A stretch of DNA of 47,645 nucleotides from Levilactobacillus zymae DSM 19395 (GTDB lineage: Bacteria > Bacillota > Bacilli > Lactobacillales > Lactobacillaceae), in assembly GCF_001434115.1 (NCBI RefSeq), contig NZ_AZDW01000006.1, positions 1 through 47,645 of the forward strand, written 5' to 3'. The translations under genes and the position numbers were made by a program. Below, in pieces: positions 60 through 31,447 of the stretch (positions are counted from its first letter, which is position 1; each line of letters opens with the position of its first letter). The notes below the pieces were generated by a model that was given only the letters and a program-made list of their open reading frames with translations, searched no databases and had not been told where the DNA came from.

Positions 60-342
60 GGGCCTGTCTTAAAACTCAATCACCGATTTAAATGATCATC
101 CATTACCCTCTACTGAAAAGAATCCAGTTTATTTATTGTTATAACTCGTATCAGCTGGAGGGCCAGTCAGAAATGGGCTCAGGGGTGAAATTTGTGTTGG
201 CCGGTGTCCTTTGCCGGCCTAGACAAAGGTCGGTCTTCAAGACCTGGGCTATGGGCTTGAAGCCGTGCCCACCCCGTTCCAGCCCGTTTCTGACTGGCCC
301 GGAGGCGCTGAATACTCAAAATTAGTCTTTTAAGACAGGCCC
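60..342. mobile_element. MITE-like repeat element, copy A (full length)
   Basis: The 283-bp element is bounded by perfect 15-bp terminal inverted repeats, GGGCCTGTCTTAAAA at 60-74 and its complement at 328-342. TA lies on both sides (58-59 and 343-344), as expected for a TA target duplication. It has no transposase gene. Positions 160-300 hold a long folded core: the 20-nt arm 160-179 pairs with 281-300 and encloses a GC-rich apical hairpin plus two short palindromes (GTCTTCAAGAC and GGCTTGAAGCC types). A second complete copy lies in inverse orientation at 31168-31447, and a core-only copy at about 4913-5074. TA duplication is typical of IS630/Tc1-mariner transposition, so mobilisation by such an enzyme is inferred. 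Confidence 0.8.
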
Positions 343-381
343 TAGTAATCCGCCTATACTAACGACAAAGGAAGTGTTTGT

Positions 382-1791
382 ATGATTAATTGGGCCGCCA
401 GTCTTCCGGCCATTAAACCCAAATACCTAGCCATCACGCAACTGATCAAAACGCTCATTCAAAGCGACCAGCTGCTTCCCGGTCAACGATTGCCCGCCGA
501 ACGCCAACTGGCGACCTGGTTGCGCGTCGACCGGTCCACCGTCAGCCGGGCGTTGGCCGACCTCAGCGCCCAGGGCGTGTTGGTCAAACGCCGCGGCAGC
601 GGGACTTTCGTGGCGCAGATTCCCCAACTCAAGCCACTGACCACCAGCGTGAACTGGCAGCTCTTGCGGCATCCCGCTCCGCCCAGCGCCTCGTTACAGG
701 CCCAACTGACCCAGGCTCGGGCCCTCGACCACGGTCAACTCATCGACGGAGCCGCGGCGGGCCTGCCCCCCGAACTGATTCCTCGGCTGGGACAGTTTCA
801 GCTGGATTGGGCGACCTACCTGGCCCAGCAGACACCGGCGACCACCCTGGGTGACCCCGACCTGTTGGCTACGCTAAGCCGGCAACCCGTTCTCTTTCCC
901 CAACTCGACCTGACGCACCAAACCCTCATGGTCGCCGGGGGCGCGGAACAATCCCTCTTTTTAGTCCTCAGTAGCCTCCTGCAGCCGGGCGACGCGGTGG
1001 CGTTCGTCACGCCCTCCTACTTCAACGCCACGGCCGTTTTCAACACCCTGAGCATTCGGACCTACCCCGTCCCACTGACCACGACGCATTTTGCCCTCGA
1101 CCAACTCGACCAAACCATCCGCCAACACCGTATCAAACTGCTGATCATGAATCCCACGTTTGAAAACCCGACCGGCGAAACGTTGACGTTGACCCAACGC
1201 CAGCGACTCCTGCGCCTTTGCCAGCATTATCAAATCCCTATCGTCGAGGATGACGTGTTTGGCTGGCTGGTGACCGACGAAACGGCCATGCCGCCGCTCA
1301 AGGTCCTTTCCCCGGCCAACGTGATCTACATCAGCTCCCTATCGAAACTTCTAGGCGCGAACACCCGTATCGGGTGGCTGATTGCCCCGCAAGCCATCGG
1401 TCAGCGCCTGTTGCAGGTCCAAAAACAACTCGATATGGTCCCCAGTATGTTAGCGCAAGCCTGGGTCAACCTGGCTCTCAACAGTCCGCGCTTCGACGGT
1501 GAGTTAACCCGGCTAACCACCGAACTGACCCAGCGCCGGCAAGCTGTGGCCGCCATCTTTCGGCGGTACCGCCCCACTTGGCGTTTCACCCTCCCGCAAG
1601 GCGGCTTTTATCTCTGGGTCCACCAAGATGACCGCACCATTTTTAACCGCCTTCTCGAGCAGGACATCCTGGTACAGCCGGGAACCCTGTTCGGCGCCGG
1701 TCGGGGGGACTTTCGCTTCAACGTGGCGGGGATGACTCCCAGCCGCCAACGTGACTTGGCCAACCGTCTCGCTGCCACGCAATCGTCCTAA
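382..1791 (+). CDS. MocR/PdxR-type regulator (GntR HTH fused to aminotransferase-like domain)
   Basis: A 469-residue cytoplasmic regulator. The N-terminal winged helix of the GntR family occupies about residues 12-78, with the recognition region near 44-65. Residues from about 110 to the end form a fold-type-I aminotransferase domain, with the NPT motif near 257-259 and a PLP lysine in SLSK (K322). Such proteins sense PLP or amino-acid-derived ligands and usually act at a neighbouring metabolic operon, but no vitamin B6 or amino acid gene adjoins here, so the target is unknown. The ATG follows an AAAGGAAG ribosome site. The gene starts 40 bp downstream of repeat copy A and converges on asnS across a shared terminator. 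Confidence 0.85.
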   Translation: MINWAASLPAIKPKYLAITQLIKTLIQSDQLLPGQRLPAERQLATWLRVDRSTVSRALADLSAQGVLVKRRGSGTFVAQIPQLKPLTTSVNWQLLRHPAPPSASLQAQLTQARALDHGQLIDGAAAGLPPELIPRLGQFQLDWATYLAQQTPATTLGDPDLLATLSRQPVLFPQLDLTHQTLMVAGGAEQSLFLVLSSLLQPGDAVAFVTPSYFNATAVFNTLSIRTYPVPLTTTHFALDQLDQTIRQHRIKLLIMNPTFENPTGETLTLTQRQRLLRLCQHYQIPIVEDDVFGWLVTDETAMPPLKVLSPANVIYISSLSKLLGANTRIGWLIAPQAIGQRLLQVQKQLDMVPSMLAQAWVNLALNSPRFDGELTRLTTELTQRRQAVAAIFRRYRPTWRFTLPQGGFYLWVHQDDRTIFNRLLEQDILVQPGTLFGAGRGDFRFNVAGMTPSRQRDLANRLAATQSS

Positions 1792-1793
1792 AA

Positions 1794-1809
1794 TGTTTCA
1801 TGTGAAACA
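1794..1809. other. parS-like site 1
   Basis: TGTTTCATGTGAAACA matches the ParB-binding parS consensus TGTTTCACGTGAAACA at 15 of 16 positions (C to T in the centre). It lies between two convergent genes. Four further sites occur in the window. Confidence 0.7.
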
Positions 1810-1851
1810 ACGTTCCGTGGTGTTCACTAAATTTAGACGTTATCAGGACGC

Positions 1852-1888
1852 AAAAGGCCGTGCTGCGAATTTTCGCAGCACGGCCTTT
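1852..1888. terminator. Bidirectional terminator between the MocR gene and asnS
   Basis: A 16-bp GC-rich stem (AAAGGCCGTGCTGCGA, loop ATTT, complement) with A-run and T-run edges serves two convergent genes. Confidence 0.85.
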
Positions 1889-1902
1889 ACTAGCTTTAAT
1901 TT

Positions 1903-3297
1903 TTAGAAATCGGCGTTTCCTGGCGTCCGTGGGTAAGGGATCACGTCGCGGATGTTCTTCATCCCGGTGACGTACATCACTAACCGTTCGAAGCCAATCC
2001 CGAAGCCGGAATGGACGGTTTCCCCGTACTTCCGGAGGTCTTGGTACCAACCGTATTCTTCTTCCGACATGTGGTTGTCCTTGATCTTTTCGGCCAAGAC
2101 ATCCCGGCGTTCTTCCCGTTGGCTCCCACCAACCAGTTCCCCGATTTCAGGAACTAACAGGTCGACCGCAGCGACGGTCTTGCCGTCGTCGTTGGCCCGC
2201 ATGTAGAAGGCCTTGATTTCCTTAGGGTAGTCCGTCAAGAAGACCGGCTTGTTGTAGATGTGTTCACACAGGTAGCGTTCGTGTTCGGCTTCCAGATCCA
2301 AGCCCCAGTAAACCGGTACTTCGAAGTCCTGGTCGGCGTCTTCGAGTTCCTTGATGGCTTCGGTGTAGGTCAGGCGCGCAAACTTTTCATCGCGGGTCTT
2401 TTCCAACCGTTCGATCAAGTGGTCGTCCACGTTGTCGTTCAAGAAGGCCAATTCGTCCTGGGCGTTGTCCAGCACGTAGCTGACCACGGCCTTGATCAGT
2501 TCTTCGATGGTCACGATGTCGTCATCCAGGTCTTCGAACGCCATTTCGGGTTCGATCATCCAGAATTCGGACGCGTGCCGGGCCGTATGCGAGTTTTCCG
2601 CCCGGAACGTTGGGCCGAAGGTGTAGACCTTCCGCAAAGCCAAGGCAAAGGCTTCGGCTTCCAGCTGACCACTCACCGTCAGGTTGGTTTCCTTCCGGAA
2701 GAAGTCCTTGCTGTTATCGACCTTGCCGTCCTCGGTGTGCGGTAAGTTGTTCATGTCGAGCGTGGTGACCCGGAACATCTCTCCGGCCCCTTCGGCGTCA
2801 CTCCCAGTGATGATTGGGGTGTTCAGGTAGTTAAACCCGTGCGCCTGCAGGTACTGGTGCGTAGCAAACGCCGCCAACGACCGAATCCGGAAAACCGCGT
2901 AGAACGTGTTGGTCCGGGGCCGCAAGTGCGCGATGGTCCGCAGGTATTCGTAGGTGTGGGCCTTCTTTTGCAGCGGGTAGTCGCTGTCCGAAGCGCCTTC
3001 GAGAACCACGGCGTCCGCGTGGATTTCTAAAGGTTGCTTAGCATCCGGCGTGTAAACGACTTTCCCGGTCACCGCAATCGTGGAGCTGATGGGGAACTTA
3101 GCAATGTCGGCGTAGTTGTCGAGGTCGCTGGCCTTCATCACGATTTGCGCGTTTTTAATGGTCGAGCCATCGTTTAATTCGATGAACCCGATCTTCTTGG
3201 AACTCCGAATCGTCTTGACCCACCCGTGAAGCGTGATGGTCTGGTCTTCAGCGTAATGTTGGTCGCTGAATAAATCTTTTACTAAAATGTCTGACAT
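1903..3297 (-). CDS. asnS: Asparaginyl-tRNA synthetase
   Basis: Charges tRNA-Asn with asparagine in the cytoplasm. The 464-residue length fits full-length bacterial AsnRS. Residues about 20-105 are the OB-fold anticodon-binding domain ([19 protein letters not shown]). The class II catalytic core follows, with motif 2 around [20 protein letters not shown] and motif 3 [15 protein letters not shown] near the C-terminus. ATG at 3297 follows AGGGAG. A T-box leader on the same strand, with an apparent AAC specifier, makes expression respond to uncharged tRNA-Asn and agrees with AsnRS rather than AspRS. It is transcribed toward the shared terminator at 1852-1888. Confidence 0.95.
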
Positions 3298-3338
3298 GGT
3301 GGATTCTCCCTTCGTGTCTTATCCTTGGTCAAAACCAT

Positions 3339-3605
3339 AAAAAAAGATCCATCATCCCCTGTAACAGGGACGAAAGATCTTTCCGCGGTACCACCCAATT
3401 TGTTTATTGTTAAACCGACTTTAATTGGCATCCTAACAGATGCCCCGAACGATAACGTGTCGGCCACGGTCCTTCCTACTAGCGGTGCGTTCAGAAGACA
3501 ACAGAAAAGGTGTTTTTCCGATAAGTGACCGTGCTAAGCTTTCACTGCCCTTAGCTCGCTAGATGCGGCGGCGTTACCGTACTCTCGTTTTCTATAGTTT
3601 TTAAC
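3339..3605 (-). promoter_or_regulatory. T-box riboswitch (Asn) upstream of asnS
   Basis: On the minus strand the leader carries the T-box sequence GGGTGGTACCGCG (3396-3384) just before a terminator hairpin and T-run (3382-3339). Upstream, GAGAGTA on the 5' side faces AAAAACACC on the 3' side. They form a specifier loop between a closing AGAAAA/TTTTCT helix and a GGTAA/TTATC helix. This places an AAC asparagine codon at 3514-3512. The AGCGAGC...GGGCAGTG segment resembles the distal stem I elements. Uncharged tRNA-Asn should stabilise the antiterminator. Confidence 0.9.
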
Positions 3606-3660
3606 ACTATTCAGATAAGCACAGGTTACCACGGATTACGGTTAGACGCAATCCCCTAGC

Positions 3661-4224
3661 TTAAGCCCGTTGGTGCGCGTAGGCGCCGCGCAGGGCCACC
3701 TTATCCTGAGAACTAATGGTGGCGTAACGGTTCGTCGCGTTCATCACGCTGTGCTTATCCTGGGAATGACTCAGGCCTAGCGCGTGTCCCAGCTCGTGGG
3801 TGGCGACGTTGACGCGTTGGGTCTTGGTGTAGCGGTAACCCGTGAGGATGCCCCGGTTCAAAATCGACTTGGCGGAAACGATGCGGTTGTCGTGAGGCCG
3901 TTGATAATAGCTGTAATCCGTATAGCCCGCAAAGACCTGTGCCCGGGTGATCGACTGGGCCGACGTTAACTCGATATCGGCCTTCTGCCCGGCGGGAACG
4001 GCTCGCAGCCGCACCACGCCAGTGTTATTCCATTGCCGGATGGCCCGTTGCCAGACATCCCGATAATATGTAGATTTAGACGCGCAATGGTAGGTAATCG
4101 TCAGGGAGTTCCAGTGGCCCCAGGTGGGCGTCACGGTCGCCGCCGATGAGGATTGCCCGGTCAGACACGTTAAGGTTCCGGCAGTCAGTAAAACGGTCAG
4201 GGTTTTCATGAGTAGTTTAAACAT
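3661..4224 (-). CDS. Secreted matrixin-like zinc metalloprotease
   Basis: The product is about 187 residues. An N-terminal signal peptide (FKLLMKTLTVLLTAGTLTCL, then an AxA-type site near SSSAAT) sends it outside the cell. The catalytic motif HELGHALGLSH at about 143-153 fits HExxHxxGxxH of the metzincins: three zinc-binding histidines and the general-base glutamate are all present. A following SVMN could be the Met-turn. The compact size matches small bacterial M10-type proteases. The ribosome site is weak for the ATG at 4224; TTG at 4227 and an internal ATG at 4209 are alternatives. Two operator-like direct repeats lie upstream. Substrate unknown. Confidence 0.85.
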   Translation of the reverse strand: MFKLLMKTLTVLLTAGTLTCLTGQSSSAATVTPTWGHWNSLTITYHCASKSTYYRDVWQRAIRQWNNTGVVRLRAVPAGQKADIELTSAQSITRAQVFAGYTDYSYYQRPHDNRIVSAKSILNRGILTGYRYTKTQRVNVATHELGHALGLSHSQDKHSVMNATNRYATISSQDKVALRGAYAHQRA

Positions 4225-4299
4225 CAATCAGCACTCGCTTTCGTTGGCTAGGATGAGATACGGTGTCAGATGACCCGGTCGGGGGGTATTTGACATTTC

Positions 4300-4342
4300 A
4301 AATTGTACGCAATTGAATTGTGAAGAAAATTGTGACGCAATT
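4300..4342. repeat. Two operator-like direct repeats upstream of the protease gene
   Basis: AAATTGTACGCAATT at 4300-4314 and AAATTGTGACGCAATT at 4327-4342 each have AATTG/CAATT arms and recur with a period of 27 bp. They lie 76-118 bp upstream of the protease start, suggesting tandem binding of a regulator. Confidence 0.45.
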
Positions 4343-4440
4343 TTGACCGGTTTCCCGTGATTAATTTCGTCAAGCCCCTCAGGTGTGTGTGGGCTTCACC
4401 ATCAGGCCAACTCATCGCTTATGCTCTGGTCAACCCACGC

Positions 4441-4478
4441 AAAACGCCCACCGGACAAGGCCGGTGGGCGTTTTTTTT
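4441..4478 (+). terminator. Strong terminator with no assigned gene
   Basis: ACGCCCACCGG / CCGGTGGGCGT stem followed by eight T. No convincing coding region precedes it on this strand. It could end an unannotated short transcript from the 4230-4440 interval. Confidence 0.75.
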
Positions 4479-4823
4479 CGGTGCTGATTTTATCTGATTG
4501 GCTAACGGGTTCACCCAATGGGCTATCGGCCACAAGTTATTTTTAAGCGTTTTCATCTCACGCAAATTGCGTAAGTTCGTTCAGTGGTAGCTTCGTTGCC
4601 ACCGTAAATCCCTTGTGTCCCAAGGGGTCACAACACTGTCCAGCCACTCGTTCAAATTTGAGCGCTCACTACTGGACGAAGTCGTGCCAACCGTCCGGGA
4701 CCGCTCAGCCGCGTGCTCATTGGCTTTTGCCACCACCGGGCCACCTTGACGGGCCGGGCGTTCGTCGTCTACTTAACTTGTGCGCAAAAACCATCTTCTT
4801 GCGCGTAAAACTTGAAAACGACC
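4479..4823. other. Intergenic interval, no gene recognised
   Basis: About 350 bp between two terminators. It holds small palindromes (ACGCAAATTGCGT near 4560, GGTAGC/GTTGCC near 4585) but no open frame with a ribosome site and sensible composition. Confidence 0.5.
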
Positions 4824-4865
4824 AAAAAAACACTTCGTTTCAGCTGATTGCCGAAGCGAAGTGTT
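4824..4865 (-). terminator. Terminator for the EamA transporter transcript
   Basis: On the minus strand AACACTTCG (4865-4857) pairs with CGAAGTGTT (4837-4829) and is followed by seven T. It is separated from the transporter stop codon (5094) by repeat copy B. Confidence 0.7.
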
Positions 4866-4912
4866 GATTTCCGTTTAGTTAAAAACATTTAAGTTGCACT
4901 CATAACCAGTAT

Positions 4913-5074
4913 AAGCTGGAGGACCAGTCAGAAATGGGCTCAGGAGTGAAATTTGTCTTAGTCGGCGTTACTCAGCCGACTTAGACAAAGGTCGGTCTTC
5001 AAGACCCGGGTTGCGGGCTTGAAGCCGTGCCCACTCCGTTCCAGCCCATTTCTGACTGGTCCGGAAGCGCTGAA
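4913..5074 (+). repeat. Structured repeat, copy B (core only)
   Basis: This matches the interior of elements A and C but lacks the 15-bp terminal repeats. Outer arms GGACCAGTCAGAAATGGGCT (4921-4940) and 5043-5062 pair perfectly. Compared with copy A, a G-C pair has become A-T with both sides changed. The apical hairpin AGTCGGC/GCCGACT likewise differs on both arms from the other copies but stays paired. The unpaired TTAGACAAAGGTCGGTCTTC stretch is nearly invariant. Confidence 0.8.
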
Positions 5075-5093
5075 TTAGCCTTGAAATTTAGGA

Positions 5094-5993
5094 CTAGTTT
5101 AACTGCTCGCGGTGCCACATCCCCCAAACGTTCGGGATGATCACCGCCGTGATAATCAGCAGGACCCCCACGATTTGCAGGCCGCTGACCGTTTCACCCA
5201 AGACGACAAAGGCCACCACGATCGACGCCGGCAATTCCAGCGACGAGAGGATCGGGCCAATGCCGAGTTCCAGGTGCGGCATGAAGATCGAATACGCCAC
5301 CAACGGAAAGACCATCGAGAACAGCGCAATCCAAAAGCCCCACTTCAACGTCGGCCAAGTCGTCGGCGCCGTCACGATTTGCGGCCCCCAGACAATGGAA
5401 ATCAGGATAAACGCCCCGAAACACAGTAACCAGGTCTTGGTCAACGGGTCGAGGTTGTTGCCCAAGTGCGCCGTGAACTGCATGGTGCAAGCGTACCCGC
5501 AAGCCGCCAGAAAGGCGTAAAACAGACCCAGCGGCGACAAGGCCTGGGTAATCGGGAACAGCCCCGCCGCCAGCACGGTCCCAATCAGGACCAAGATGAT
5601 GCTTAACACCTGCAGCCGTGACGGCCAGCGGCGTTGAATCAACGAACCCAGTAACACGGATAACCACACGGCCTGCATCAGCATGACCGCGGCCGCCGCC
5701 ACGGGGATCAATTTCAACGCCTGAATATAGAAGGTGTTGGTGAACCCCGAGCCGGTCCCCGCCGCAATCACTAGTAGGAGTTGTTTCCAGTTCGTATGTT
5801 GATACCGTAGCCATTTGCGACGGGCTAGATGCACGATGCCCAGCACAATCACCGCGCTTAGAAACGACCAGAATAACAGGGGGCCGTTGACGACCCCTTC
5901 TTGGCGGGCAATCTTAAACAGTGTCGCGGGCACCCCAAAGCTGATGGCCCCCAACGCCACAAAAATTGGCGCAATTTTCTTCACTTCACTCAT
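5094..5993 (-). CDS. EamA/DMT-superfamily transporter
   Basis: A 299-residue integral membrane protein with about ten hydrophobic helices arranged as two EamA repeats (roughly 8-140 and 155-290), the drug/metabolite transporter layout. The substrate cannot be told from sequence; relatives export amino acids or metabolites. The ATG at 5993 sits directly against AAAGG, which is too close. A GTG nine bases later (5984) has proper spacing from AAAGGATGA and may be the real start. A strong promoter and a palindrome over the expected transcription start lie upstream. The gene's apparent terminator lies beyond repeat copy B. Confidence 0.85.
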   Translation of the reverse strand: MSEVKKIAPIFVALGAISFGVPATLFKIARQEGVVNGPLLFWSFLSAVIVLGIVHLARRKWLRYQHTNWKQLLLVIAAGTGSGFTNTFYIQALKLIPVAAAAVMLMQAVWLSVLLGSLIQRRWPSRLQVLSIILVLIGTVLAAGLFPITQALSPLGLFYAFLAACGYACTMQFTAHLGNNLDPLTKTWLLCFGAFILISIVWGPQIVTAPTTWPTLKWGFWIALFSMVFPLVAYSIFMPHLELGIGPILSSLELPASIVVAFVVLGETVSGLQIVGVLLIITAVIIPNVWGMWHREQLN

Positions 5994-6000
5994 CCTTTAT

Positions 6001-6052
6001 GTAGTAAAAAGTTCTACTACCTTATGATACACGGCCAATTTACGATTGCCAA
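6001..6052 (-). promoter_or_regulatory. Promoter and palindrome of the EamA transporter gene
   Basis: Minus strand: -35 TTGGCA (6052-6047), 17-bp spacer, -10 TATCAT (6029-6024). Right at the expected start lies the inverted repeat GTAGTAAAAAGTTCTACTAC (6001-6020), either an operator or a 5' hairpin. Confidence 0.7.
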
Positions 6053-6077
6053 ATTCTTGGGAGAAATTCCGACCAGA

Positions 6078-6112
6078 TGAAAAGCCCCACCGTATTTTTC
6101 AACGGTGGGGCT
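6078..6112 (-). terminator. Terminator of the copper operon
   Basis: AGCCCCACCGT / ACGGTGGGGCT stem, then TTTT on the minus strand, just downstream of the copA stop codon. Confidence 0.8.
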
Positions 6113-6125
6113 TGCGCCACTTAAG

Positions 6126-8051
6126 TTAAGCTGTTGCCACTTTTGACGTAATCTTCGCTTTGTTCAACAGAACCGAACTGGTGACCACGGACAAGGAACT
6201 AAAGGCCATCGCCAAGCCGGCCAATTCCGGACTCAGGGTTAACCCGATGGCGAAGAAGACGCCGGCCGCCACCGGAATCCCCAAGACGTTGTAGACGAAC
6301 GCCCAGAAAAGGTTGAGCTTGATGCGGTTGAAGGTCTTTTGGCTTAACGCCAAGGCCCGGTCCACGTCGCGCAGGTCGTTTTTCATCAGCACGATACCCC
6401 CGGAATCGATAGCGATATCGGTGCCGGACCCCATGGCGATGCCGACATCGGCAGTGGTCAGCGCGGGCGCGTCGTTGATCCCGTCACCCACGAAGGCCAC
6501 CTTACCGGTCTGCTGGTGCTGGTGAACCCAGTCGGCCTTGTCCCCTGGTAAAACGTCGGCAATCACGTCGTCGATGCCCACTTGTTGGGCGACGGCTTCC
6601 GCGACCCGCTGGTTGTCCCCGGTCAACATGACCGTCTTCAACCCGCGCGCCTTCAGCGCCGCAATGGCTTCACGCGACGTGGTCTTCGGTGCGTCTTGAA
6701 TGGCGACTAACCCGATAACCTGATCAGCTAACCCGACCAGCACCACCGTCTTGGCTTCGTTTTGCAGGCGCACCATTTCTCGCTTCAGGGTCGCGCTGAG
6801 TTGGTCGTCGGTAACCATCTTCTGGTTGCCGACAAACCCGGTCTGACCGTTGAGTTGAGCCGTGACACCTTTCCCTTCAACGGCGCGAAAGGCCGTCGTT
6901 TCAATCGGTGTCAGGTTTAACGCCTTGGCCCGGGCCAAAATAGCCGCGGCCAACGGGTGTTCCGAGGCGGCTTCCAAACTGGCGGCGACTTGTACCACTT
7001 GGGCTTCGTCGCCCACCACGTCGGTCACTTGTGGCTGGCCAACGGTAATGGTCCCCGTCTTATCGAAGATCACGGTGTCCACGTCGTTCACGGCTTCGAG
7101 GACTTCCCCGTTCTTGATCAGGATGCCCATCTTAGCGCCGCGGCCGGTCCCGACCATCAGGGCCGTGGGCGTCGCCAAACCTAAGGCACACGGGCAAGCG
7201 ATGACCACCACGGAGACCGCAAAAATCAGCGCGTTCGCCAGGCTGGCGCCCAAGAAGACGTACCAAATCAGGAAGGTCACGATGGCTAAATTCAACACCA
7301 CCGGCACGAAGATATCGGATACCTTATCGGTCAACTTTTGAATCGGTGCGTGACTGTTTTGAGCCTTTTTGACCAGCTCAACAATCTGCGACAACATGGT
7401 CTTTTCGCCGACCTGGTTGACCCTGAATTGGAAGGTTCCCGTGCTGTTTAGGGTGGCGCCAATCACGGCGTCGTCGACGTGCTTTTCGACCGGCATACTT
7501 TCACCGGTGACCATCGACTCGTCCACGCTGGAACTCCCGGCGGTGATCACGCCGTCGACCGGGACCTTCTGGCCGGGCTTGACCCGCACGATGTCGCCTA
7601 ATTGCACGTCGGCAATGGGGACCCGGACAAAGTCGCCATCCCGTAAGACTTCGGCATCCTTGGCTTGCAAATTCATCAGTTTTTCCACGGCGTTGGCGGA
7701 ATTATTACGCATCCGCTCTTCGAAAACCTGACCCAGCAGGACGAAGGTGGTCACGAAGGCCGCACTTTCGAAGAAAACCGCCTGGTGGGTGATCATCGCG
7801 TACAGGCTATAGACGTACGCCGTCGCGGTCCCAATCGCCACTAAGGTATCCATGTTGGCGTGGTGCTTGGTAAACGACGCCCAGGCACTCTGCCAGAACG
7901 GTCGCGCCGACACCAGCATCACAATCGTGGTCAAAATCAGCTGGGTCCAGTCCCCGCCCGGCAACATCCAGCCGAACGGCATCCCGATCATCCCCGCCAA
8001 CATCGGTAGCGAGAAGATCAGGGAAACCCAGAAACGCTTGGTGATACTCAT
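6126..8051 (-). CDS. copA: Copper-type P1B ATPase without N-terminal metal-binding domain
   Basis: Probably exports Cu+ from the cytoplasm using ATP. The 641 residues show TGES (about 182-185, actuator), the transmembrane CPC in [11 protein letters not shown] (286-288), the phosphorylated DKTGT (330-334) and [10 protein letters not shown]. These are the P1B-1 landmarks. No HMA GMxCxxC domain precedes the first helix. I take ATG 8051 because it overlaps the upstream stop codon as ATGA, indicating translational coupling. An upstream in-frame start at 8093 lies inside the cupredoxin gene. It is the last gene of a three-gene operon behind CopY-type boxes. Confidence 0.92.
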
Positions 8052-11562: not shown

Positions 11563-11564
11563 AA

Positions 11565-23576: not shown

Positions 23577-23769
23577 CGAATCACCACCTTTAACGGAGCC
23601 TATCTCACGGTTGTTCAAGTAACTGTTCCAATGTCAGTATACAACTGCGTTACTAGTAATACGGTTTACAAGTACCCGAAAAGGTTAAGGCGATTCATCA
23701 CGTCCTTAAAAGAACGTGTCTTCTCGCCCAAATATCAATAACTCATTAGGTCCATTCTACCGCAAACCT

Positions 23770-23785
23770 TGTTTCACGTGAAACA
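23770..23785. other. parS-like site 2 (perfect)
   Basis: TGTTTCACGTGAAACA is identical to the parS consensus. It lies between the tnpB element and the zinc-ribbon gene. Confidence 0.82.
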
Positions 23786-23853
23786 TGAGATTCTTTGGTG
23801 CCCCCACCCGGAGTATGGTAGGATTAATTATTACATCGACGGAGGTGTTCTAG

Positions 23854-24273: not shown

Positions 24274-24344
24274 TTTTGGCAACGTCCCGTCACCGGGCGT
24301 TGCCCTTCGTTGAGTATCAGACTCGGCGTTTCATTAACCACCTT

Positions 24345-24391
24345 AAAAGGGAAACTCAATCGTCCGACCGACGAGCGAGTTTCCCTTTTTT
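24345..24391 (+). terminator. Terminator after the zinc-ribbon gene
   Basis: AAAAGGGAAACTC and GAGTTTCCCTTTTTT pair around a 19-nt loop. Confidence 0.75.
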
Positions 24392-24494
24392 AACGCTGCC
24401 ACCGGCGAGCCAACAGGCCGCTACGTCGATTCCCGTTTCCCCGCCAAGTGTGCTATATTTTAGGGCAGAGACCCAAAACGATGGAGGTACTGAA

Positions 24495-25178: not shown

Positions 25179-25219
25179 AAAAACTGGCGCCCACTTTCCT
25201 TGCGGAGGTGGGCGCCAGT
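25177..25219 (-). terminator. Terminator of padC
   Basis: ACTGGCGCCCAC / GTGGGCGCCAGT stem and seven T on the minus strand. Confidence 0.85.
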
Positions 25220-25235
25220 CGTCTATTCTGCTAGA

Positions 25236-25775
25236 TTATTTCTTCAGTCGCTTGTAGTTGGCGTCGTAGAACTTACCGGCACGAATGTCGTCGGGCATCC
25301 CCGCGTATGGCGCTTCGTTGATCACGTCGTCGTTGTTCTGACCGGCATCACCCATGTAAGTGATTTTAGCCATTTCTGGCACCACCAGCTTCGGGTAAGT
25401 GGCATACTTTTCCCGGGATTCCTCCATCAAGTCGATGTGGTCGTTTTGGTAAGTGACCGTGATTTCGGGATGGTCCTGAACCCACTTGGGGAAGAAAATC
25501 GTGCCGTGCATCTTCTTTTCGTTAGGCAGGAAATCCAGAGCCACGTCGGTCCCGGTCGGTTCCGTCCAGGAAATCTTGTAGAGTCCCGGCGCCAGCATCA
25601 CAATGTCAGCTTCCTGGTTTGTCACCCAGCGGCCGGCAACCATCCCGCCGTGAATCCGGTAATCCACGGTGTGGTCGTTCTTGGCGTACCATTCGTACTC
25701 CCACCCGTTATCGTAGGTGTAAATGAAGTGGGTTCCCAAAAAATCGTCTAAAGTTTTAAATTGCTTGTCAGCCAT
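25236..25775 (-). CDS. padC: Phenolic acid decarboxylase
   Basis: A cofactor-free cytoplasmic enzyme that decarboxylates p-coumaric, ferulic and caffeic acid to vinylphenols, detoxifying plant phenolics. At 179 residues it is full length. Characteristic segments are [18 protein letters not shown] (about 17-34), [14 protein letters not shown] and [11 protein letters not shown], which contain the active-site tyrosines, arginine and glutamate of the lipocalin-like barrel. ATG 25775 follows AGAAAGGA; upstream in-frame codons cross the promoter. It is divergent from padR with a PadR operator just downstream of its promoter, the classical substrate-induced arrangement. Confidence 0.96.
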
Positions 25776-25798
25776 GTGTTCAAATCCTTTCTTTTTCA

Positions 25799-25864
25799 AC
25801 ATGTAATTAATTACATGTTTTAATTTACGATGATTACTATAAATCTCGGTCGCGGCAGAGTCAA
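25799..25864 (-). promoter_or_regulatory. padC promoter and PadR operator
   Basis: Minus strand -35 TTGACT (25864-25859), 17-bp spacer, -10 TATAGT (25841-25836). Downstream is the perfect 20-bp palindrome ACATGTAATTAATTACATGT (25799-25818), containing the PadR pattern ATGT-N8-ACAT. The same operator lies near the -35 of a rightward promoter for padR. Confidence 0.85.
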
Positions 25865-25937
25865 GGATTATCTTGAACTTTTTGGTGGAAACTGGTTCAA
25901 TGGGGAAGAGAATAACGGCCTCAAGGAGGTGTTTACC

Positions 25938-26486
25938 ATCGGACAACGGAATCGACTCCAATACATTATTTTGGGTCTCCTCGGTCAGCAGGACCAGACC
26001 GGTTACGACCTGACCAAGGCCTTCGAACACGAAATCGGTGAGTTCTGGCAGGCCAGCCACAGCCAAATCTACCCCCAACTCCAGCGGTTGGAAACGGCCG
26101 GCGACATCACTCACCAGGACCAAATCACTGGCGAAAAACTCACCAAAAAGGTTTACCAGTTGACCGCCCAGGGACAAAAAAAGCTCGCCGCGTGGGTCAG
26201 CGAGCCCTCACCGGAACTCACCGCCACCAAGGACGAGTTTATTTTGAAACTGTACTTCATCAAATCGGCCAACGACCCGCGGCTGGGCCCCATGTTACGA
26301 GAACAAACACAACTCCACGCCGAACAGCTGGCACATTTACAGGAACGGCAACGGGAGGTCTTCCCCAACCAAGCCGCCATCGACGCGGCTTTCGGGCACT
26401 ACCTCATCTTGGAACACGCCATTGAGCGGGAAAGCCACTACGTTGAATGGCTTCAACGGTATCAAACATTATCTAATAACCACTAA
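25938..26486 (+). CDS. padR: PadR, phenolic-acid-responsive repressor
   Basis: About 182 residues: a PadR winged helix ([19 protein letters not shown] ... [16 protein letters not shown]) and a C-terminal dimerising helix bundle. It represses the divergent padC and is released by phenolic acids. The start is unusual. AAGGAGG at 25923-25929 is spaced correctly only for an ATC codon at 25938, giving (M)[10 protein letters not shown]. The in-frame GTG at 25929 overlaps the ribosome site, and no ATG, GTG or TTG fits better. Upstream open frame to 25830 overlaps the promoter region. Confidence 0.85.
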
Positions 26487-26488
26487 TT

Positions 26489-26531
26489 AAAGGATTTCTG
26501 ATCGTTAATCATCTGGTCAGAAGTCCTTTAA
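26489..26531. terminator. Bidirectional terminator
   Basis: TTAAAGGATTTCTGATC and GGTCAGAAGTCCTTTAA pair between padR and a convergent secreted-protein gene. Confidence 0.65.
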
Positions 26532-27064
26532 TTATTAGGCCGGTAACGATCCCCTTCAAAATGCGCATTGGAATAGTGCCGGGCAAGGTGCTTCGTATGG
26601 TACGCGTAACCATCTGTCCAAATTCCAGCACCACTCGCTAACTGCAACGCCGGACGATACTTTCCCTCCAGGTAATTGCTGGTTCGCATATAGTAGTTTC
26701 CGGCACCGGCACCTTGGTACCAACCATAGGTCCAAATCCAATCCTCATCTTGATAATAAGCATGGGTCGCGATAATCCAACTAGGGTGTACCCGTTTAGC
26801 CCACGGTTTCCCGGTGAAGTAGACATTCTTTCGTGAATGTAGTCGTTGTGTGGTTCCCGCAGAGATCATCTGTTTCGCGGTAATTTTCACCCGATAATAG
26901 CGATGATTGTTGTAAGTGTACCAAGTTCCCCGAATAGATTTAGGAAACACTCTAAGTGTTCGGGTAGCATTAGCGGAAGCAACTGTTACCGGCGTCTCCA
27001 CTCCCCCGATTCCTATCAGACTCATCCCTAAACTGCCTAAAAGTAACCATCGTTTAAACCTCAT
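26528..27064 (-). CDS. Secreted protein of unknown function
   Basis: 178 residues. A signal peptide (RFKRWLLLGSLGMSLIGIGG then ASANA) leads to a mature tyrosine-, tryptophan- and histidine-rich domain with segments such as GTWYTYNNHRYYRVKIT and IWTYGWYQGAGAGNYYMRTS. The opening GTWY layout resembles many lactobacillus secreted proteins that carry no enzyme motif. I see no catalytic signature or wall anchor. ATG 27064 follows AGGAGTACG. Base composition is lower in GC than in neighbouring genes. Confidence 0.75.
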   Translation of the reverse strand: MRFKRWLLLGSLGMSLIGIGGVETPVTVASANATRTLRVFPKSIRGTWYTYNNHRYYRVKITAKQMISAGTTQRLHSRKNVYFTGKPWAKRVHPSWIIATHAYYQDEDWIWTYGWYQGAGAGNYYMRTSNYLEGKYRPALQLASGAGIWTDGYAYHTKHLARHYSNAHFEGDRYRPNN

Positions 27065-27229
27065 CGTACTCCTCCTTTAATTATCTCCAACCATGTTCAG
27101 TATAGTTATCCAATCTCCTTTCAGCTACTCCTTCGCCTTATAAATAATTTCGTATAAGAACTTTATTGAATTAAAAATCGCTCTTTGTTTTTAGATAATT
27201 ACGGTCGATAACAAAAGTTAGGCACATTT
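27065..27229. other. AT-rich intergenic region
   Basis: About 165 bp of noticeably AT-rich DNA between divergent genes. No further element was recognised apart from the flavodoxin promoter to its right. Confidence 0.4.
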
Positions 27230-27258
27230 TTGTAATCGGTTACATAATGACTTATACT
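27230..27258 (+). promoter_or_regulatory. Promoter of the flavodoxin gene
   Basis: -35 TTGTAA (27230-27235), 17-bp spacer, -10 TATACT (27253-27258), about 25 bp before the ribosome site. Confidence 0.65.
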
Positions 27259-27290
27259 AAACCTATCGAATCGAAACGGAGGGGTTTTCA

Positions 27291-27716
27291 ATGACAGTAG
27301 CTATTCGTTATCAAACACGCAACGGCAACACCGAAGCGTTCGCTAAAGAAATTTCCGCAGTCGCCGGTGTACCGGCGGAAGACGTCAAGACGCCCGTCGA
27401 TGAGGCCGACATCCTCTTCTTCGGCGGCGGGACCTATTTCATGCGGCCCGACAAGAGCGCCTCGGCCTTCATGGAGGGCCTGGACCCCGCTAAAATCAAG
27501 CACATCGCCTTCTTCACCACCTCGGGCGGCCCCGAAGCCGTGACCGACAAGGCGTTGACCAAGATTGCCGACGAAAAGGGCATTCCGGTCATCGGCCACT
27601 TCCACCAAGTCATGGGCGGTAAAGGGATGAAGATCCTGGGCAGCTCCGGCGGGGTCTTGAAAGACAACCAGGTCCAACTGGTTAAAGAATTTGCCGAAAA
27701 AATGTTAAAGGCTTAA
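27291..27716 (+). CDS. Flavodoxin-family protein
   Basis: 141 residues of flavodoxin-like alpha/beta fold. The phosphate-binding loop YQTRNGNTEAFAKEI (about 7-21) is the FMN-binding start, FFGGGTYF near 43-50 and FFTTSGGPE near 79-87 supply the other flavin loops. It probably carries electrons as FMN/FMNH2 in the cytoplasm. Partners are not identifiable; a ferredoxin-type reductase is not adjacent. ATG 27291 follows CGGAGGGG. Own promoter and terminator, convergent with arsC. Confidence 0.85.
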   Translation: MTVAIRYQTRNGNTEAFAKEISAVAGVPAEDVKTPVDEADILFFGGGTYFMRPDKSASAFMEGLDPAKIKHIAFFTTSGGPEAVTDKALTKIADEKGIPVIGHFHQVMGGKGMKILGSSGGVLKDNQVQLVKEFAEKMLKA

Positions 27717-27720
27717 CGTC

Positions 27721-27761
27721 AAACGACCGAACACTTCGTCATGGGGTGTTCGGTCGTTTTT
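27721..27761. terminator. Bidirectional terminator
   Basis: AAACGACCGAACAC / GTGTTCGGTCGTTT stem between convergent genes. Confidence 0.85.
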
Positions 27762-27764
27762 GGG

Positions 27765-28178
27765 TTAGTTTAGCGTTTGCGCCAAGCGGGCAACCCGTTG
27801 GCGAATCTGGTCGCGAACCTGCCGAAAGACGGCCAACTGTTGGGCCGCACTGCCCGTGGCCTGCGCCGGGTCCGCCAGCGGCCAATGGACCTTGCGCACG
27901 CTGGGTGGCGTCACGGGACAGCGGTCGCGCGCATCCCCACACAGTGTCACGACCACATCACAGTGCGCCAGGTAATCCGGATCGATCAGTTTAGACGTTT
28001 GCCCCGAGATGTCGACACCCACCTCGGCCATCACCCGCACGGCTTGCGGATTCAGCCCGTGCGTTTCAACCCCGGCGCTGGCGACTCGCCAAGTGGGCCC
28101 CAATAATTGACGGGCAAACCCTTCGGCCATTTGACTGCGACACGAGTTGCCGGTACACAGAAAGTAAACTTGTGGCAT
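27765..28178 (-). CDS. arsC: Thioredoxin-coupled arsenate reductase
   Basis: 137 residues of the low-molecular-weight phosphatase fold. The P-loop CTGNSCR (Cys8 to Arg14) is the nucleophile loop, and [12 protein letters not shown] supplies Cys80 and Cys87 for the disulfide cascade, which distinguishes ArsC from tyrosine phosphatases. It reduces arsenate to arsenite with thioredoxin. No arsR, arsB or acr3 lies nearby, so export would rely on genes elsewhere. ATG 28178 is nine bases from AAGGAG; TTG 28187 touches the ribosome site and is rejected. Confidence 0.88.
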
Positions 28179-28279
28179 GGCTCCCAACTCCTTTTTACTG
28201 GTAACATAAGCCGTCTGGCCGGCCTTGTCAACGGGAGAATATGCTATAGTGAAACTAACAATTAAGGAGGTCGTTTTTG

Positions 28280-29239
28280 ATGAAAGCTATCGTTGTGCGT
28301 CATCCGGGCGGACCGGAAGTGCTCGAGTATACCGATGTGCCCACGCCGACCGTCAAACCCGGTTGGACGTTGATCACGGTGCGTGGTTTCGGGGTCAACC
28401 ACTCCGAGATCTTTACGCGCAAGGGCTTTTCGCCGTCGGTCACCTTCCCCCGGATTTTAGGCATCGAGGCCGTGGGAACGGTGGCAGCCACGTCGGCTCC
28501 CGACCGGTTTACCGTGGGCCAAACCGTGGTGTCCATCATGGGCGAAATGGGCCGGGCCTTCGACGGGGGCTACGCGGAAGCCGTACTCCTGCCGAACGAC
28601 CAAATCTACCCGGTCCACACCACCCTCGATTGGGCCGACTTGGCGGCGGTCCCCGAGACCTTCTACACGGCGTTCGGCATCGTGGCCAGTCTGCGCGTTC
28701 AACCGCACGACCGGGTACTAATTCGGGCGGCCACCAGTGGCGTTGGCGTCGCGGCCTTTAAGCTGATCCGCGCCCTGGCCCCCCAGGCCACCATCGTGGG
28801 AACGACCCGGTCGGCCAAAAAGGTCGCCGCCCTCGAAGCACTAGGCTTTACCGAGGTGCTGGTCACACCAGACCCCCTCGACCTGCCAACTAACAGCGGC
28901 ACTTTTGATAAAATCGTGGACCTGATTGGCGGCAAAGCTATCCGCGATTCCCTCCAACGCCTCAACGAATTTGGTATCGTGAATTCGACCGGTGAACTTG
29001 GCGGCGAATGGACCATTGACGGCTTCGACCCCATCACCGACATTCCCAACAATCGCTACCTGACCGGCTTTTCTTCCGGTGACGTGGCGCCCGACGCGCT
29101 GCAACACCTGTTGGACTTCATCACCGCGCACCACGTCGACGTGCACCCGGCAAAGGTCTTTGACCTGGCCCACACCGCCGATGCTCACCGGTACCTGGAA
29201 AGCGGGCAGAGCCTGGGCAAAGTCGTGGTCCTACCTTAA
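28280..29239 (+). CDS. Zinc-independent quinone oxidoreductase-like protein (MDR superfamily)
   Basis: 319 residues: GroES-like N-terminal domain (about 1-120) and Rossmann domain with a glycine motif in [15 protein letters not shown] (about 149-163). Structural and catalytic zinc cysteines are absent, as in NADPH:quinone reductases of the zeta-crystallin group. It probably reduces quinones or reactive enones with NADPH. ATG 28280 follows AAGGAGGTCG; a TTG just before is disregarded. A gap of 26 bp to the GyrI-like gene suggests one operon. Confidence 0.87.
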
Positions 29240-29265
29240 CCTATCTAAATTGGAGGAACTGACCC

Positions 29266-29886
29266 ATGAAATACGAATGGCGTAAACAAGAACGTGACCT
29301 GTACCTGCCCAAGGGCATCCAGGTCGTCAACGTCCCGCAAGTCCACTTTCTCACGCTCACGGGGCACGGCGATCCGAATCAACCGGCCTTTAGCGCGCAG
29401 ATTCAGGCCCTGTACCCCGTGGCCTACGCGGTGCGCATGGCCCTGAAAAAGGGCGAATTCGGGACGCCCTACGAATACACGGTCTACCCGCTGGAGGGCG
29501 TCTGGACCACCACGGATGGCTCGCGTGACGCGACCCTGAATAAGGCCGCCCTGGCCTACACCATCATGCTGCGCCAACCGGACCAGGTCACCGCCGAACA
29601 GGTCCAACTCGCCATCGCGCGCACCCGGGACAAACATCCCAGTCCCTACCTGGACCAACTCCAATTCGTGACTTACACCGAAGGACGCTGCTTACAAGCC
29701 ACCCACACCGGGTCCTTCGACACCGAGGGCACCACGTTCGCCGCGATGCGTGACTACCTGACCGCCCATCAGCTGACCACCCAAACCACGATGGGCGACT
29801 ACCAACACCGCGAAATCTACCTGTCCGATTTTCGCCGGGTAGCCCCGGAACGCCGCAAGACCACGTTGCAGTGGCGGTTAGCTTAG
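29266..29886 (+). CDS. GyrI-like small-molecule-binding domain protein
   Basis: 206 residues. The opening RKQERDLYLPKGIQVVNVPQ and the GEFGTPYEYTVYPLEGVW segment are characteristic of stand-alone GyrI-like proteins of Firmicutes. They have the SOUL/GyrI fold that binds hydrophobic ligands, without a DNA-binding part. The later LQATHTGSFDTEGTTFAAM is the usual second half of the fold. Function unknown; cotranscription with a quinone reductase suggests handling of a toxic small molecule. It follows TTGGAGGAACTG. Confidence 0.82.
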   Translation: MKYEWRKQERDLYLPKGIQVVNVPQVHFLTLTGHGDPNQPAFSAQIQALYPVAYAVRMALKKGEFGTPYEYTVYPLEGVWTTTDGSRDATLNKAALAYTIMLRQPDQVTAEQVQLAIARTRDKHPSPYLDQLQFVTYTEGRCLQATHTGSFDTEGTTFAAMRDYLTAHQLTTQTTMGDYQHREIYLSDFRRVAPERRKTTLQWRLA

Positions 29887-29915
29887 CGGCCAATCGCACA
29901 GAGCGTGGTCTCGTC

Positions 29916-29954
29916 AAAAAAGGTGCCCTTTCGCTAAGGAAAGGACACCTTTTA
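29916..29954. terminator. Bidirectional terminator
   Basis: AAAGGTGCCCTTTC / GAAAGG(A)CACCTTT with A and T runs, between the GyrI-like gene and the convergent marR gene. Confidence 0.75.
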
Positions 29955-29970
29955 TTATTAATAACAAGGA

Positions 29971-30594
29971 TTAATAATTATCGTGAGGCCGTCGGGGGCC
30001 GTCCCCGAACATGTCGCGCATGTTAGGACCTATGCCGCCGCGCATCCCCATGCCGCCCTCATGCCGGTGCATGCCGTGGCCGCGGTGTAAGACTTGGGCC
30101 TGTTCCATGAAGGCGCGGAAGTCCGCCGATTTGGCCCAATCGCTGGGTTGTTTGGCTTCAAGGTCCTTGAGCAACTTCTGGAGGATGTCGCGTAACTGGG
30201 CCTGTTCCGCCTCACTGAGCGTGGTGAACAGGGCCTCCGAGAAATCGTCCTTGGCCTTGTGCGCCGTTTCGAGGAACTTGTGGCCGGCCGTGGTCAGTGA
30301 AATCAACGCCACCCGCTTGTCGTCCGGTGACGCCTGGCGTTCGATCAACCCGGCGTCTTCCAGCTTAGCGACTAACGCGCTGACGGAACTGGGCCGAATA
30401 TCGAGGTCCTCGACGATGTCGGAATTGGTCAGGTGATCGTGTTCGGTTAGTAGGTGTAGTAGTCGGAGTTGGTTGGAATTACGTTGGGGATCGCATTCAT
30501 TCATGCGGGTGCTGCGCACGGCCGCGGAAACGAAGGCCCGTTGTTGAAACAGCCGACCAAAGAGGGTCAATAATGCTTGTGAGTCATAAGTCAT
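29971..30594 (-). CDS. MarR-family regulator with His/Met/Gly-rich tail
   Basis: 207 residues. The MarR winged helix lies at about 35-145: LRLLHLLTEHDHLTNSDIVE, then IRPSSVSALVAKLEDAGLI and the wing QASPDDKRVALISLT. The C-terminal 40 residues after the dimerisation helices are unusual: HRGHGMHRHEGGMGMRGG and onward, rich in His, Met and Gly, like metal-binding tails. Copper or nickel binding is only inferred. ATG 30594 follows GGGAGTG-type sequence. It is divergent from a Fe-S-biosynthesis-family gene across four TAGTTAG half-sites. Confidence 0.88.
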   Translation of the reverse strand: MTYDSQALLTLFGRLFQQRAFVSAAVRSTRMNECDPQRNSNQLRLLHLLTEHDHLTNSDIVEDLDIRPSSVSALVAKLEDAGLIERQASPDDKRVALISLTTAGHKFLETAHKAKDDFSEALFTTLSEAEQAQLRDILQKLLKDLEAKQPSDWAKSADFRAFMEQAQVLHRGHGMHRHEGGMGMRGGIGPNMRDMFGDGPRRPHDNY

Positions 30595-30616
30595 TTGTGG
30601 TCACTCCCGTTTTATA

Positions 30617-30695
30617 TTTAGTTAGATTCAAAACGTATTAACTAACTAAATGCAGTATACCCCGATAGTTAGTTTATGTCAAATCAAACTAACTA
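30617..30695. promoter_or_regulatory. Two inverted-repeat operators between marR and the Fe-S-family gene
   Basis: TTTAGTTAG / CTAACTAAA (30617-30625, 30642-30650) and TAGTTAGTTT / AAACTAACTA (30666-30675, 30686-30695). The four half-sites share TAGTTAG. They probably bind the adjacent MarR protein. Confidence 0.75.
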
Positions 30696-30772
30696 AAAAG
30701 CAGAAGACCCCACCCGACCAGCCCGTTCGTGGTAAACTGGTCCCAACTTCACTCACGAAAGGACTGACGCGG

Positions 30773-31168
30773 ATGACCCCCATTAAACTCACGCCCGCTT
30801 TTATGGCGGTGCTGGACCAAAAGAACTTAACCACTAAAGACTTGGTGCTAATCGCCGATGACGGTGGCGGCAAGTACTCCCTGCAAGGCGGGGCCTGCAC
30901 CATCGGCACCAACTTTACGTTAATTGTGCTCGATGCACCGGACCCGGACTACCCCGTAGCCATCGCGAACGACCAGGGCTTGCATCTCTGGTCGTCGGAC
31001 TACGACCTCTACTTTCTCGGCGCCGGTCTGACCCTCGACGTGGCCCACCACAACATCTTGCTCAAAGACGACGCCGAACTGCTCGATAGCACGGTCAAAA
31101 TTGCTCGCGGACAGGACGTCCTGGACGCCTTTCGGCAAGGCATCAAGCTCAGTGGTGACGGCTGTTAG
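30773..31168 (+). CDS. Iron-sulfur cluster biosynthesis family (HesB-like) protein
   Basis: 131 residues. The segment LIADDGGGKYSLQGGACTIG and SDYDLYFLGAGLTLD resemble a lactobacillus group annotated as iron-sulfur cluster biosynthesis (A-type-carrier fold). The canonical three-cysteine CGCG...C pattern is not complete: Cys in GGACTIG and the terminal Cys are the only candidates. An Fe-S role is therefore family-level inference. ATG 30773 follows AAAGGA; the upstream open frame to 30650 runs through the operators. The TAG stop is formed by the TA flank plus the first G of repeat element C. Confidence 0.65.
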   Translation: MTPIKLTPAFMAVLDQKNLTTKDLVLIADDGGGKYSLQGGACTIGTNFTLIVLDAPDPDYPVAIANDQGLHLWSSDYDLYFLGAGLTLDVAHHNILLKDDAELLDSTVKIARGQDVLDAFRQGIKLSGDGC

Positions 31169-31447
31169 GGCCTGTCTTAAAAGTATTCAGCGCCTCCGGA
31201 CTAACCCGGTCAGCAATGGGCTGGAACGGAGCGGGCACGGCTTCAAGCCCGTAGCTCAGGTCTTGAAGACCGACCTTTGTCTAGGCTAGCAAAGAACGCC
31301 AGCCAACACTAGCCCATTTCCCTCCTGAGCCCGTTTCTGACTGGCCCTCCAGCTTACACGAGTTATAACAATAAATAAACTGGATTCTTTTCAGTAAAGG
31401 ATAATGGATGATCATTTAAATCAGCGATTGAGTTTTAAGACAGGCCC
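31168..31447. mobile_element. MITE-like repeat element, copy C (full length, inverse orientation)
   Basis: A 280-bp element with the same 15-bp terminal inverted repeats as copy A (31168-31182 and 31433-31447) and TA on both sides (31166-31167, 31448-31449). Its reverse complement aligns with copy A along its whole length. The apical hairpin GGCTGGC/GCTAGCC differs from A and B but still pairs with one G-U. The outer core stem carries about three mismatches, so this copy seems partly decayed. It abuts a perfect parS site. Confidence 0.8.

What the first reader, a model, noticed from the sequence alone, without database searches (positions are those of the whole stretch)
60..31447. Three-copy repeat with compensatory base changes: a candidate undescribed structured RNA
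The cores at 160-300, 4921-5062 and the reverse complement of about 31195-31360 share a long fold. The apical arms are GGCCGGT/GCCGGCC, AGTCGGC/GCCGACT and GGCTGGC/GCTAGCC. Three columns change on both sides while keeping pairing. In the outer stem of A versus B, a G-C has become A-T on both sides. The segment TAGACAAAGGTCGGTCTTC is nearly invariant. Pairing kept with changed sequence points to selection on RNA (or cruciform DNA) structure, not just repeat homology. Copy C's outer stem has about three mismatches, so not every copy need be active.
Basis: partly seen in the sequence, partly recalled or inferred. Interest (0 to 1): 0.82.

Follow-up and report, generated by a model that had tools for sequence, protein, structure and literature searches.

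The report
Mobile repeat with conserved three-way fold
The three repeats belong to a large, apparently undescribed family of mobile intergenic elements, found in many genera of lactobacilli, that keep the same branched fold while their sequence changes; what the fold does is not known.

Summary
The three copies share a ~159-nt fold: long outer stem, conserved asymmetric loop, three-way junction with two arms. They are 3 of 72 covariance-model hits in the window's own Levilactobacillus genome. Hits occur in 90 of 301 sampled Lactobacillaceae genomes, 14 of 40 genera, with 53 in a genome that is very probably Lactiplantibacillus plantarum. The copies tested match no Rfam family.

Pairing is kept beyond phylogeny: in an R-scape-like test on 59 rows, 26 of 56 pairs covary; the one off-structure pair adjoins a helix.

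The copies are mobile. A and C are MITE-like units with 15-bp inverted ends between TA dinucleotides; a filled/empty pair of a near-identical copy shows a TA insertion. In the L. plantarum-like genome 25 of 25 close pairs stand head to head, with other end sequences.

Transcription is not shown. The same strand folds better with RNA and DNA energies, so RNA and single-stranded DNA are not separated. Cores are swapped between loci, so I drop an in-place compensation argument. Most likely, but only inferred, the fold is a signal that keeps the element spreading.

The parts
58..344 (+). Copy A: 283-bp MITE-like element (60-342) with a TA at each side (58-59, 343-344)
   Evidence: Inverted ends at 60-74 and 328-342; TA duplication seen in a filled/empty pair of a near-identical copy in a relative
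60..74 (+). Left inverted end of copy A
137..145 (+). TGTTATAAC, extended -10-like motif upstream of core A; enriched in the window's clade only
154..312 (+). Copy A structured core (model positions 1-159)
   Evidence: 179.7 bits with model R1; fold z -11.0 for 57-345
157..159 (+). 5' half of the conserved GGA/GGA internal loop at the base of P1
160..179 (+). P1 5' strand (pairs with 281-300)
182..187 (+). P2 5' strand (pairs with 270-275)
188..190 (+). Junction strand AAA; UCG in other copies
191..227 (+). Arm P3 with a conserved U-U mismatch (198/220)
228..269 (+). Arm P4
270..275 (+). P2 3' strand
276..280 (+). GUUCC, 3' side of the conserved asymmetric internal loop
281..300 (+). P1 3' strand
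301..303 (+). 3' half of the GGA/GGA loop
328..342 (-). Right inverted end of copy A
4915..5074 (+). Copy B structured core; no recognisable inverted ends
   Evidence: 175.7 bits; fold z -11.6 for 4900-5080
31186..31353 (-). Copy C structured core, with outer-stem mismatches and a 5-base insert
   Evidence: 129.3 bits; fold z -5.1 for 31160-31460, outer stem not in the lowest-energy fold
31168..31182 (+). Inverted end of copy C (right end in the element's own orientation); element 31168-31447 is 280 bp
31433..31447 (-). Inverted end of copy C (left end in the element's own orientation)

Best explanation
The repeats are copies of a non-autonomous mobile element family whose conserved unit is a ~155-nt strand-specific three-way-junction fold. 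SHOWN: the fold is kept by compensatory change across genera; units are mobile; the fold is carried on units with different end sequences; in several genomes it occurs as head-to-head pairs. INFERRED: the fold is read, most likely as RNA made by read-through transcription, by a protein supplied in trans, and this helps the element to move or persist (a cis-acting selfish signal) rather than regulating one particular host gene. In the window, copies A and C sit as 283- and 280-bp MITE-like units between TA dinucleotides; B is, by inference, an older copy with eroded ends.
For: Covariation beyond phylogeny, 26 of 56 pairs, in all helices except the 2-bp base. Shuffle and slide controls. Conserved unpaired features: GGA/GGA loop, U-U mismatch in P3, junction AAA or UCG, GUUCC loop. 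One strand folds better with RNA energies: 64 of 67 distinct own copies, 56 of 59 in A3, 52 of 61 in A4. G-U exceeds A-C cells 37:18 and 88:38 in sequence-only alignments. Mobility: filled/empty pair with TA duplication, further loci empty in a relative, 72, 53 and 147 hits in three genomes, plasmid matches in 17 records, 16 of them covering at least 80% of the query. Head-to-head pairs: 25 of 25 close pairs in G281, 6 of 7 in the own genome. No consistent gene orientation in G281, 8/6/6/5, which speaks against a role tied to one gene side.
Against: No transcript was examined. The -10-like motif is not enriched outside the window's clade: other genomes 3.97 v 3.80, p 0.09, and in L. plantarum-like copies it is below control. 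DNA energies give the same strand bias, and the G-U excess is not significant per pair (19 v 12, p 0.28; 30 v 18, p 0.11). Copies are not independent. No transposase or partner gene with matching ends was found in what I searched. In the own genome 13 of 28 copies lie between convergent genes, which could also mean a host role.
Confidence: 0.47

Rival explanations
1. The fold acts as DNA: the core is a hairpin or cruciform, or a single-stranded intermediate of one strand, recognised by a transposase at the ends of the element; no RNA is involved.
For: Head-to-head pairs put one fold near each end of the L. plantarum-like unit. DNA energies favour the same strand, 64 of 67 own copies and 59 of 59 in A3. 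No promoter-like motif outside one clade.
Against: A G034 copy near-identical to A inserted as a unit with a single core and simple 15-bp ends, so two cores are not needed for movement. A branched fold with conserved internal loops is more than a transposase end normally needs (inference).
Confidence: 0.28
2. The element supplies a host-useful regulatory RNA module, such as a 3' end processing or stability element for neighbouring transcripts, spread by transposition.
For: 13 of 28 own-genome copies lie between convergent genes, 9 of these 13 within 60 nt of the end of the gene on their 3' side. The longest T-run in the next 60 nt is longer than control in own copies (3.69 v 2.66), in their closest relatives (3.44 v 2.77) and in L. 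plantarum-like copies (4.17 v 3.13; 3.92 v 3.03). Bacillus bcr repeats are found in transcripts and bcr3 correlates with mRNA decay (PMC3446304, passages).
Against: No orientation preference in G281. No longer T-run in the other genomes (3.09 v 3.00) and no promoter common to all groups. Loci are mostly not shared: of 30 G267 loci compared with 28 G281 loci, 1 shares flanking gene sequence beside the element. Cores are swapped between loci.
Confidence: 0.16
3. No selection on the fold: hairpins correct themselves by template switching during replication, and gene conversion spreads the results.
For: Cores are homogenised: L004 is 99.4% identical to copy A but 84.9% to its own orthologue. One core looks precisely lost between short repeats, so these hairpins may provoke slippage.
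Against: Self-correction would remove the U-U mismatch of P3, the GGA/GGA loop and the asymmetric loop, yet these persist. It would not favour G-U over A-C or one strand.
Confidence: 0.05

Closest known systems
bcr1 and the bcr1-bcr18 repeats of the Bacillus cereus group (PMC6542083 and PMC3446304, passages seen; the 2004 and 2011 original papers not read)
   Same: Intergenic, 100-400 bp, some MITE-like and in high copy, some on plasmids, some with conserved secondary structure; 84 of 165 and 62 of 155 copies were in transcripts of two strains.
   Different: Restricted to one species group; mobility tied to a TTTAT motif. Here the family spans 14 sampled genera, has a three-way junction and occurs head to head. 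Sequences were not compared.
Efa-1 of Enterococcus faecalis (PMC2267715, passages of Tables 3 and 4 and of the text)
   Same: 163-bp intergenic repeat, 65 (18) copies as listed, with a strongly folding double hairpin.
   Different: Weak R1 hits in three genomes of two other, unnamed families of the order make it a lead only.
Mobile/repeat sequence candidates such as MRSC-65-2 (PMC11109978, passages)
   Same: Structured motif with covariation and dozens of copies per genome, possibly acting as DNA.
   Different: MRSC-65-2 is a single long stem with a UYCCGG repeat, from diverse phyla; this is a branched fold. The main text does not contain the word Lactobacillus.
REP/REPIN palindromes (recalled, except the size)
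   Same: Inverted pairs of hairpins in intergenic regions.
   Different: Those repeats are 20-40 bp (PMC3733652, abstract start) and go with a RAYT transposase; none was sought here.

Membership tests
Any Rfam 15 family | Covariance-model match | tested here: not met
   0 at gathering score in the window; 0 for window 1-450, holding copy A, up to E 5; in L146, L155, L263 and L265 up to E 0.5 only two hits, neither on a core. Other loci not tested
Structured RNA | Covariation above phylogenetic expectation | tested here: met
   own R-scape-like script on an alignment fitted to the model; R-scape itself not available
Structured RNA | Discrete transcript | not testable with these tools
   no expression data
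MITE | Short, terminal inverted repeats | tested here: met
   copies A and C, 283 and 280 bp with 15-bp ends; not met for copy B
MITE | Target-site duplication | tested here: met
   TA, from one filled/empty pair, L047 v L270; at another site, L015 v L034, a longer direct repeat was seen instead
MITE | Parent transposon with the same ends | tested here: inconclusive
   all 16 end matches in the own genome flank cores, two of them with N runs; in 35 genus genomes no two opposite matches lie at an IS-like distance, but unpaired matches were not examined; no transposase near four extra end matches in G281 by ORF reading
bcr-type repeats | Sequence homology to bcr1-bcr18 | not tested
   consensus sequences not held
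Efa-1 | Sequence homology | not tested
   sequence not held
REPIN | RAYT (Y1) transposase in the genome | not tested
Intrinsic terminator | Stem followed by a T-run | tested here: inconclusive
   longest T-run in the next 60 nt above control in own, closely related and L. plantarum-like copies, not in other genomes (3.09 v 3.00)

The most novel reading that the evidence does not exclude
The ancestral element carries two different structured RNAs, one reading outward at each end, and moves by an RNA-dependent mechanism in which a host- or helper-encoded protein uses these RNAs: a bacterial non-autonomous element whose mobility depends on a folded transcript, spread unnoticed through much of a family of food bacteria.
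Probability: 0.1. Interest if true: 0.9.

Novelty: new variant of a known kind. Interest (0 to 1): 0.6.

Why it matters
Structured mobile repeats are known, but those I found described are confined to narrow groups or are simple stems. This one was found in 14 of 40 sampled genera of Lactobacillaceae, reaches 147 model hits in one genome, is very probably common in L. plantarum, and shows strong covariation, yet the copies tested match no Rfam family and seven full-text searches aimed at lactobacilli listed no paper that appears to describe it. A well-studied food bacterium carrying many copies makes its function directly testable, and the repeat should be annotated in lactobacillus genomes.

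Tried and rejected
In-place compensation: orthologous copies L004 and L045 differ by six two-sided pair changes, which looked like selection at a fixed locus. L004's core is 99.4% identical to copy A elsewhere in the genome and 84.9% to its orthologue, so it was probably replaced by conversion, and I do not use it. The six other locus pairs gave 2, 0, 0, 0, 6 and 2 two-sided changes. The 2 of L006/L039 have the same weakness (each core has closer paralogues); the 6 of L297/L281 and the 2 of L295/L289 look like alignment shifts, because direct pairwise alignments show few changes there.

Slower evolution of cores: in 24 L. plantarum-like units cores a and b are 91.9% and 93.0% identical while spacer and flanks are 71.7-77.5%. 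Because core distances follow the spacer weakly (r 0.06 and 0.10 for a, 0.24 and 0.39 for b, against 0.63 between spacer halves), homogenisation explains this as well as purifying selection does.

A promoter: enriched only in the window's clade. An open frame running into core a: start codon not conserved. A partner gene in low-copy genomes: flanking frames look ordinary; one ISL3 transposase lies beside one copy and was not seen beside the other copies read. The near-identical copies of G152 and G250 are of the L. plantarum-like type, with the same upstream block; they are not independent of it. Plasmid searches: copy A, L150 and L155 no match, L146 17 records, an L. plantarum-like unit end and two outlying copies no match. 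Phage searches: copy A and L146 no match.

Rows dropped or sampled: A1 holds 40 of 72 own copies; A2 holds 42 copies that I chose. One search used the best 61 of 81 rows of A3, 59 distinct. One search used 28 of the 40 own copies then held. One search aligned 24 of 25 close pairs, one search used 25 for context. One search used 67 distinct of 71 rows of A6, 59 distinct of the best 61 of A3, and 61 of 63 rows of A4; one search left A4 out. Counts per genome are lower bounds, because scored candidates were capped at 23, 9 and 7. Alignment A5 was used for reading only.
Full report
WHAT IS THERE. Its genus is Levilactobacillus: congeners G001 and G024 have contigs whose lengths equal those of named L. 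acidifarinae and L. spicheri records. Their cores, as placed by a covariance model, are 154-312 (+), 4915-5074 (+) and 31186-31353 (-). A and C are bounded by 15-bp inverted ends; B is not.

STRUCTURE. The fold is a ~20-bp outer stem P1 with a GGA/GGA loop at its base, a conserved asymmetric loop (CA opposite GUUCC), a 6-bp P2, a three-way junction with an unpaired AAA or UCG, arm P3 with a U-U mismatch, and arm P4. In the lowest-energy fold of C's 301-nt stretch P1 is not formed. On 40 of the 72 own-genome copies (39 distinct) 22 of 56 pairs show two-sided change against 8.1 in shuffles; sliding partners by one column drops paired cells from 96.7% to 44.0 and 49.1%. On 42 chosen copies from the genus, 37 of 56 pairs and 251 cells change on both sides, against 23.9 and 56.8 in shuffles. 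Because shuffles ignore relatedness, I wrote an R-scape-like test: FastTree tree, Fitch substitutions re-placed at random per branch, 60 simulations, APC-corrected G statistic. On 59 distinct rows, 26 of 56 structure pairs reach E<=0.05, and one pair outside the structure does, next to a P4 pair. That alignment was fitted to the model, which leans towards the structure; the A1 and A2 counts come from sequence-only alignments.

DISTRIBUTION. Model R1 finds 72 places in the own genome at E<=0.001, besides two elements whose cores are partly N runs. In the family sample 90 of 301 genomes and 14 of 40 genera have hits. In the order sample 26 of 395 genomes do; 3 of them lie in two other families, with weak E-values of 7e-6 to 1.6e-4, but a recognisable P2 and P4 tip. 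G281, with 53 hits, is very probably L. plantarum: its 7218-bp second contig matches a 7218-bp L. plantarum plasmid at 100% over the 6000 bases compared. G267 of the same genus has 147 hits. Seventeen plasmid records of Lactiplantibacillus match, with no annotated feature under the match. The copies tested match no Rfam family.

MOBILITY. A G034 copy near-identical to A fills a site that is empty in the own genome; comparison gives a TA duplication and ends GGGYCTGTCTTAAAA. Further loci are filled in one species and empty or decayed in another. With at most one mismatch these ends occur in 3 of 35 genus genomes, while L. plantarum-like units have other, partly eroded inverted ends. I infer that the fold is older than the ends that now carry it. 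No parent transposon was found in what I searched; unpaired end matches were not examined.

HEAD-TO-HEAD PAIRS. In G281 all 25 adjacent hits within 600 bp are divergent (minus then plus), 226-468 bp apart, 50 of 53 hits in all; in the own genome 6 of 7 are divergent and 1 is tandem. In G281 the two members of a pair are different subtypes, a and b. Divergent pairs also appear in other genera. Single cores such as A-C may derive from pairs; this is inference.

WHICH STRAND AND WHICH MOLECULE. The strand modelled folds better than its complement in 64 of 67 own copies, 56 of 59 in A3 and 52 of 61 in A4, and G-U outnumbers A-C cells in unfitted alignments, though not significantly per pair. DNA energies show the same bias, G-T is also tolerated in DNA (recalled), and copies are not independent. 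The strand is thus supported; RNA is not proven. A -10-like motif is enriched before the core in the window's clade only; in L. plantarum-like copies it is below control.

CONTEXT. Of 28 own copies 13 lie between convergent genes, 7 and 5 have both genes on the minus or plus strand relative to the core, 2 lie between divergent genes, and 1 has no left gene on its contig (genes are long ORFs, not gene-finder calls). In G281 the four classes are 8, 6, 6 and 5. Pfam gives a GntR/aminotransferase regulator after A, an EamA transporter beside B, and an iron-sulphur biosynthesis protein and an ABC transporter beside C: nothing shared.

RECOMBINATION BETWEEN COPIES. Cores change places: L004 resembles copy A, not its orthologue; three loci hold different subfamilies in two species; one core looks cleanly lost between short repeats. 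This limits what conservation of cores says about selection at each locus, but not the covariation between genera, nor the lasting mismatches inside long stems.

MECHANISM. I judge most likely a selfish, non-autonomous element whose fold is recognised in trans and helps it move or persist, probably as RNA (0.47). DNA-level action is the main rival (0.28), host regulation next (0.16), pure palindrome mechanics least (0.05).

LITERATURE. Ten full-text searches were made: seven aimed at lactobacilli and three at possible relatives. No listed paper appears, by title and start of abstract, to describe this family; most subscription papers are not held. I saw passages only of PMC11109978, PMC2267715, PMC3446304 and PMC6542083. 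The 2008 stem-loop survey lists Lac-1 in L. johnsonii, a genic repeat, and Efa-1 in E. faecalis, an untested possible relative.

Noticed in passing
L086/L098 (own genome C17:31171-31394) and L099 (C40:18814): Two further elements of the family have runs of N inside the core: the core itself may break assemblies, so copies are probably under-counted in draft genomes.
   Followed up: partly
L265:2137-2309, L266:2325-2502, L267:2019-2195: Weak relatives in three genomes of two other families of the order share P2 and the P4 tip and have a conserved block of their own; possibly a sister family.
   Followed up: partly
L300:1470-1660 against L287:1030-1090: Core absent exactly between GGAGGCG and GGAAGGCG, with the upstream arm left: looks like a deletion scar from slippage across a hairpin.
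   Followed up: no
G267 (L145, L227-L255): 147 model hits in one genome, several of them close to contig ends.
   Followed up: no
window:3661-4227: A 188-aa frame with a matrixin-type metallopeptidase match (Pfam Peptidase_M10) lies about 700 bp from copy B.
   Followed up: no
L015:1282-1707: The copy absent at this site in L. acidifarinae is flanked by a direct repeat of about 12 bp outside the short inverted ends, unlike the TA duplication elsewhere.
   Followed up: no
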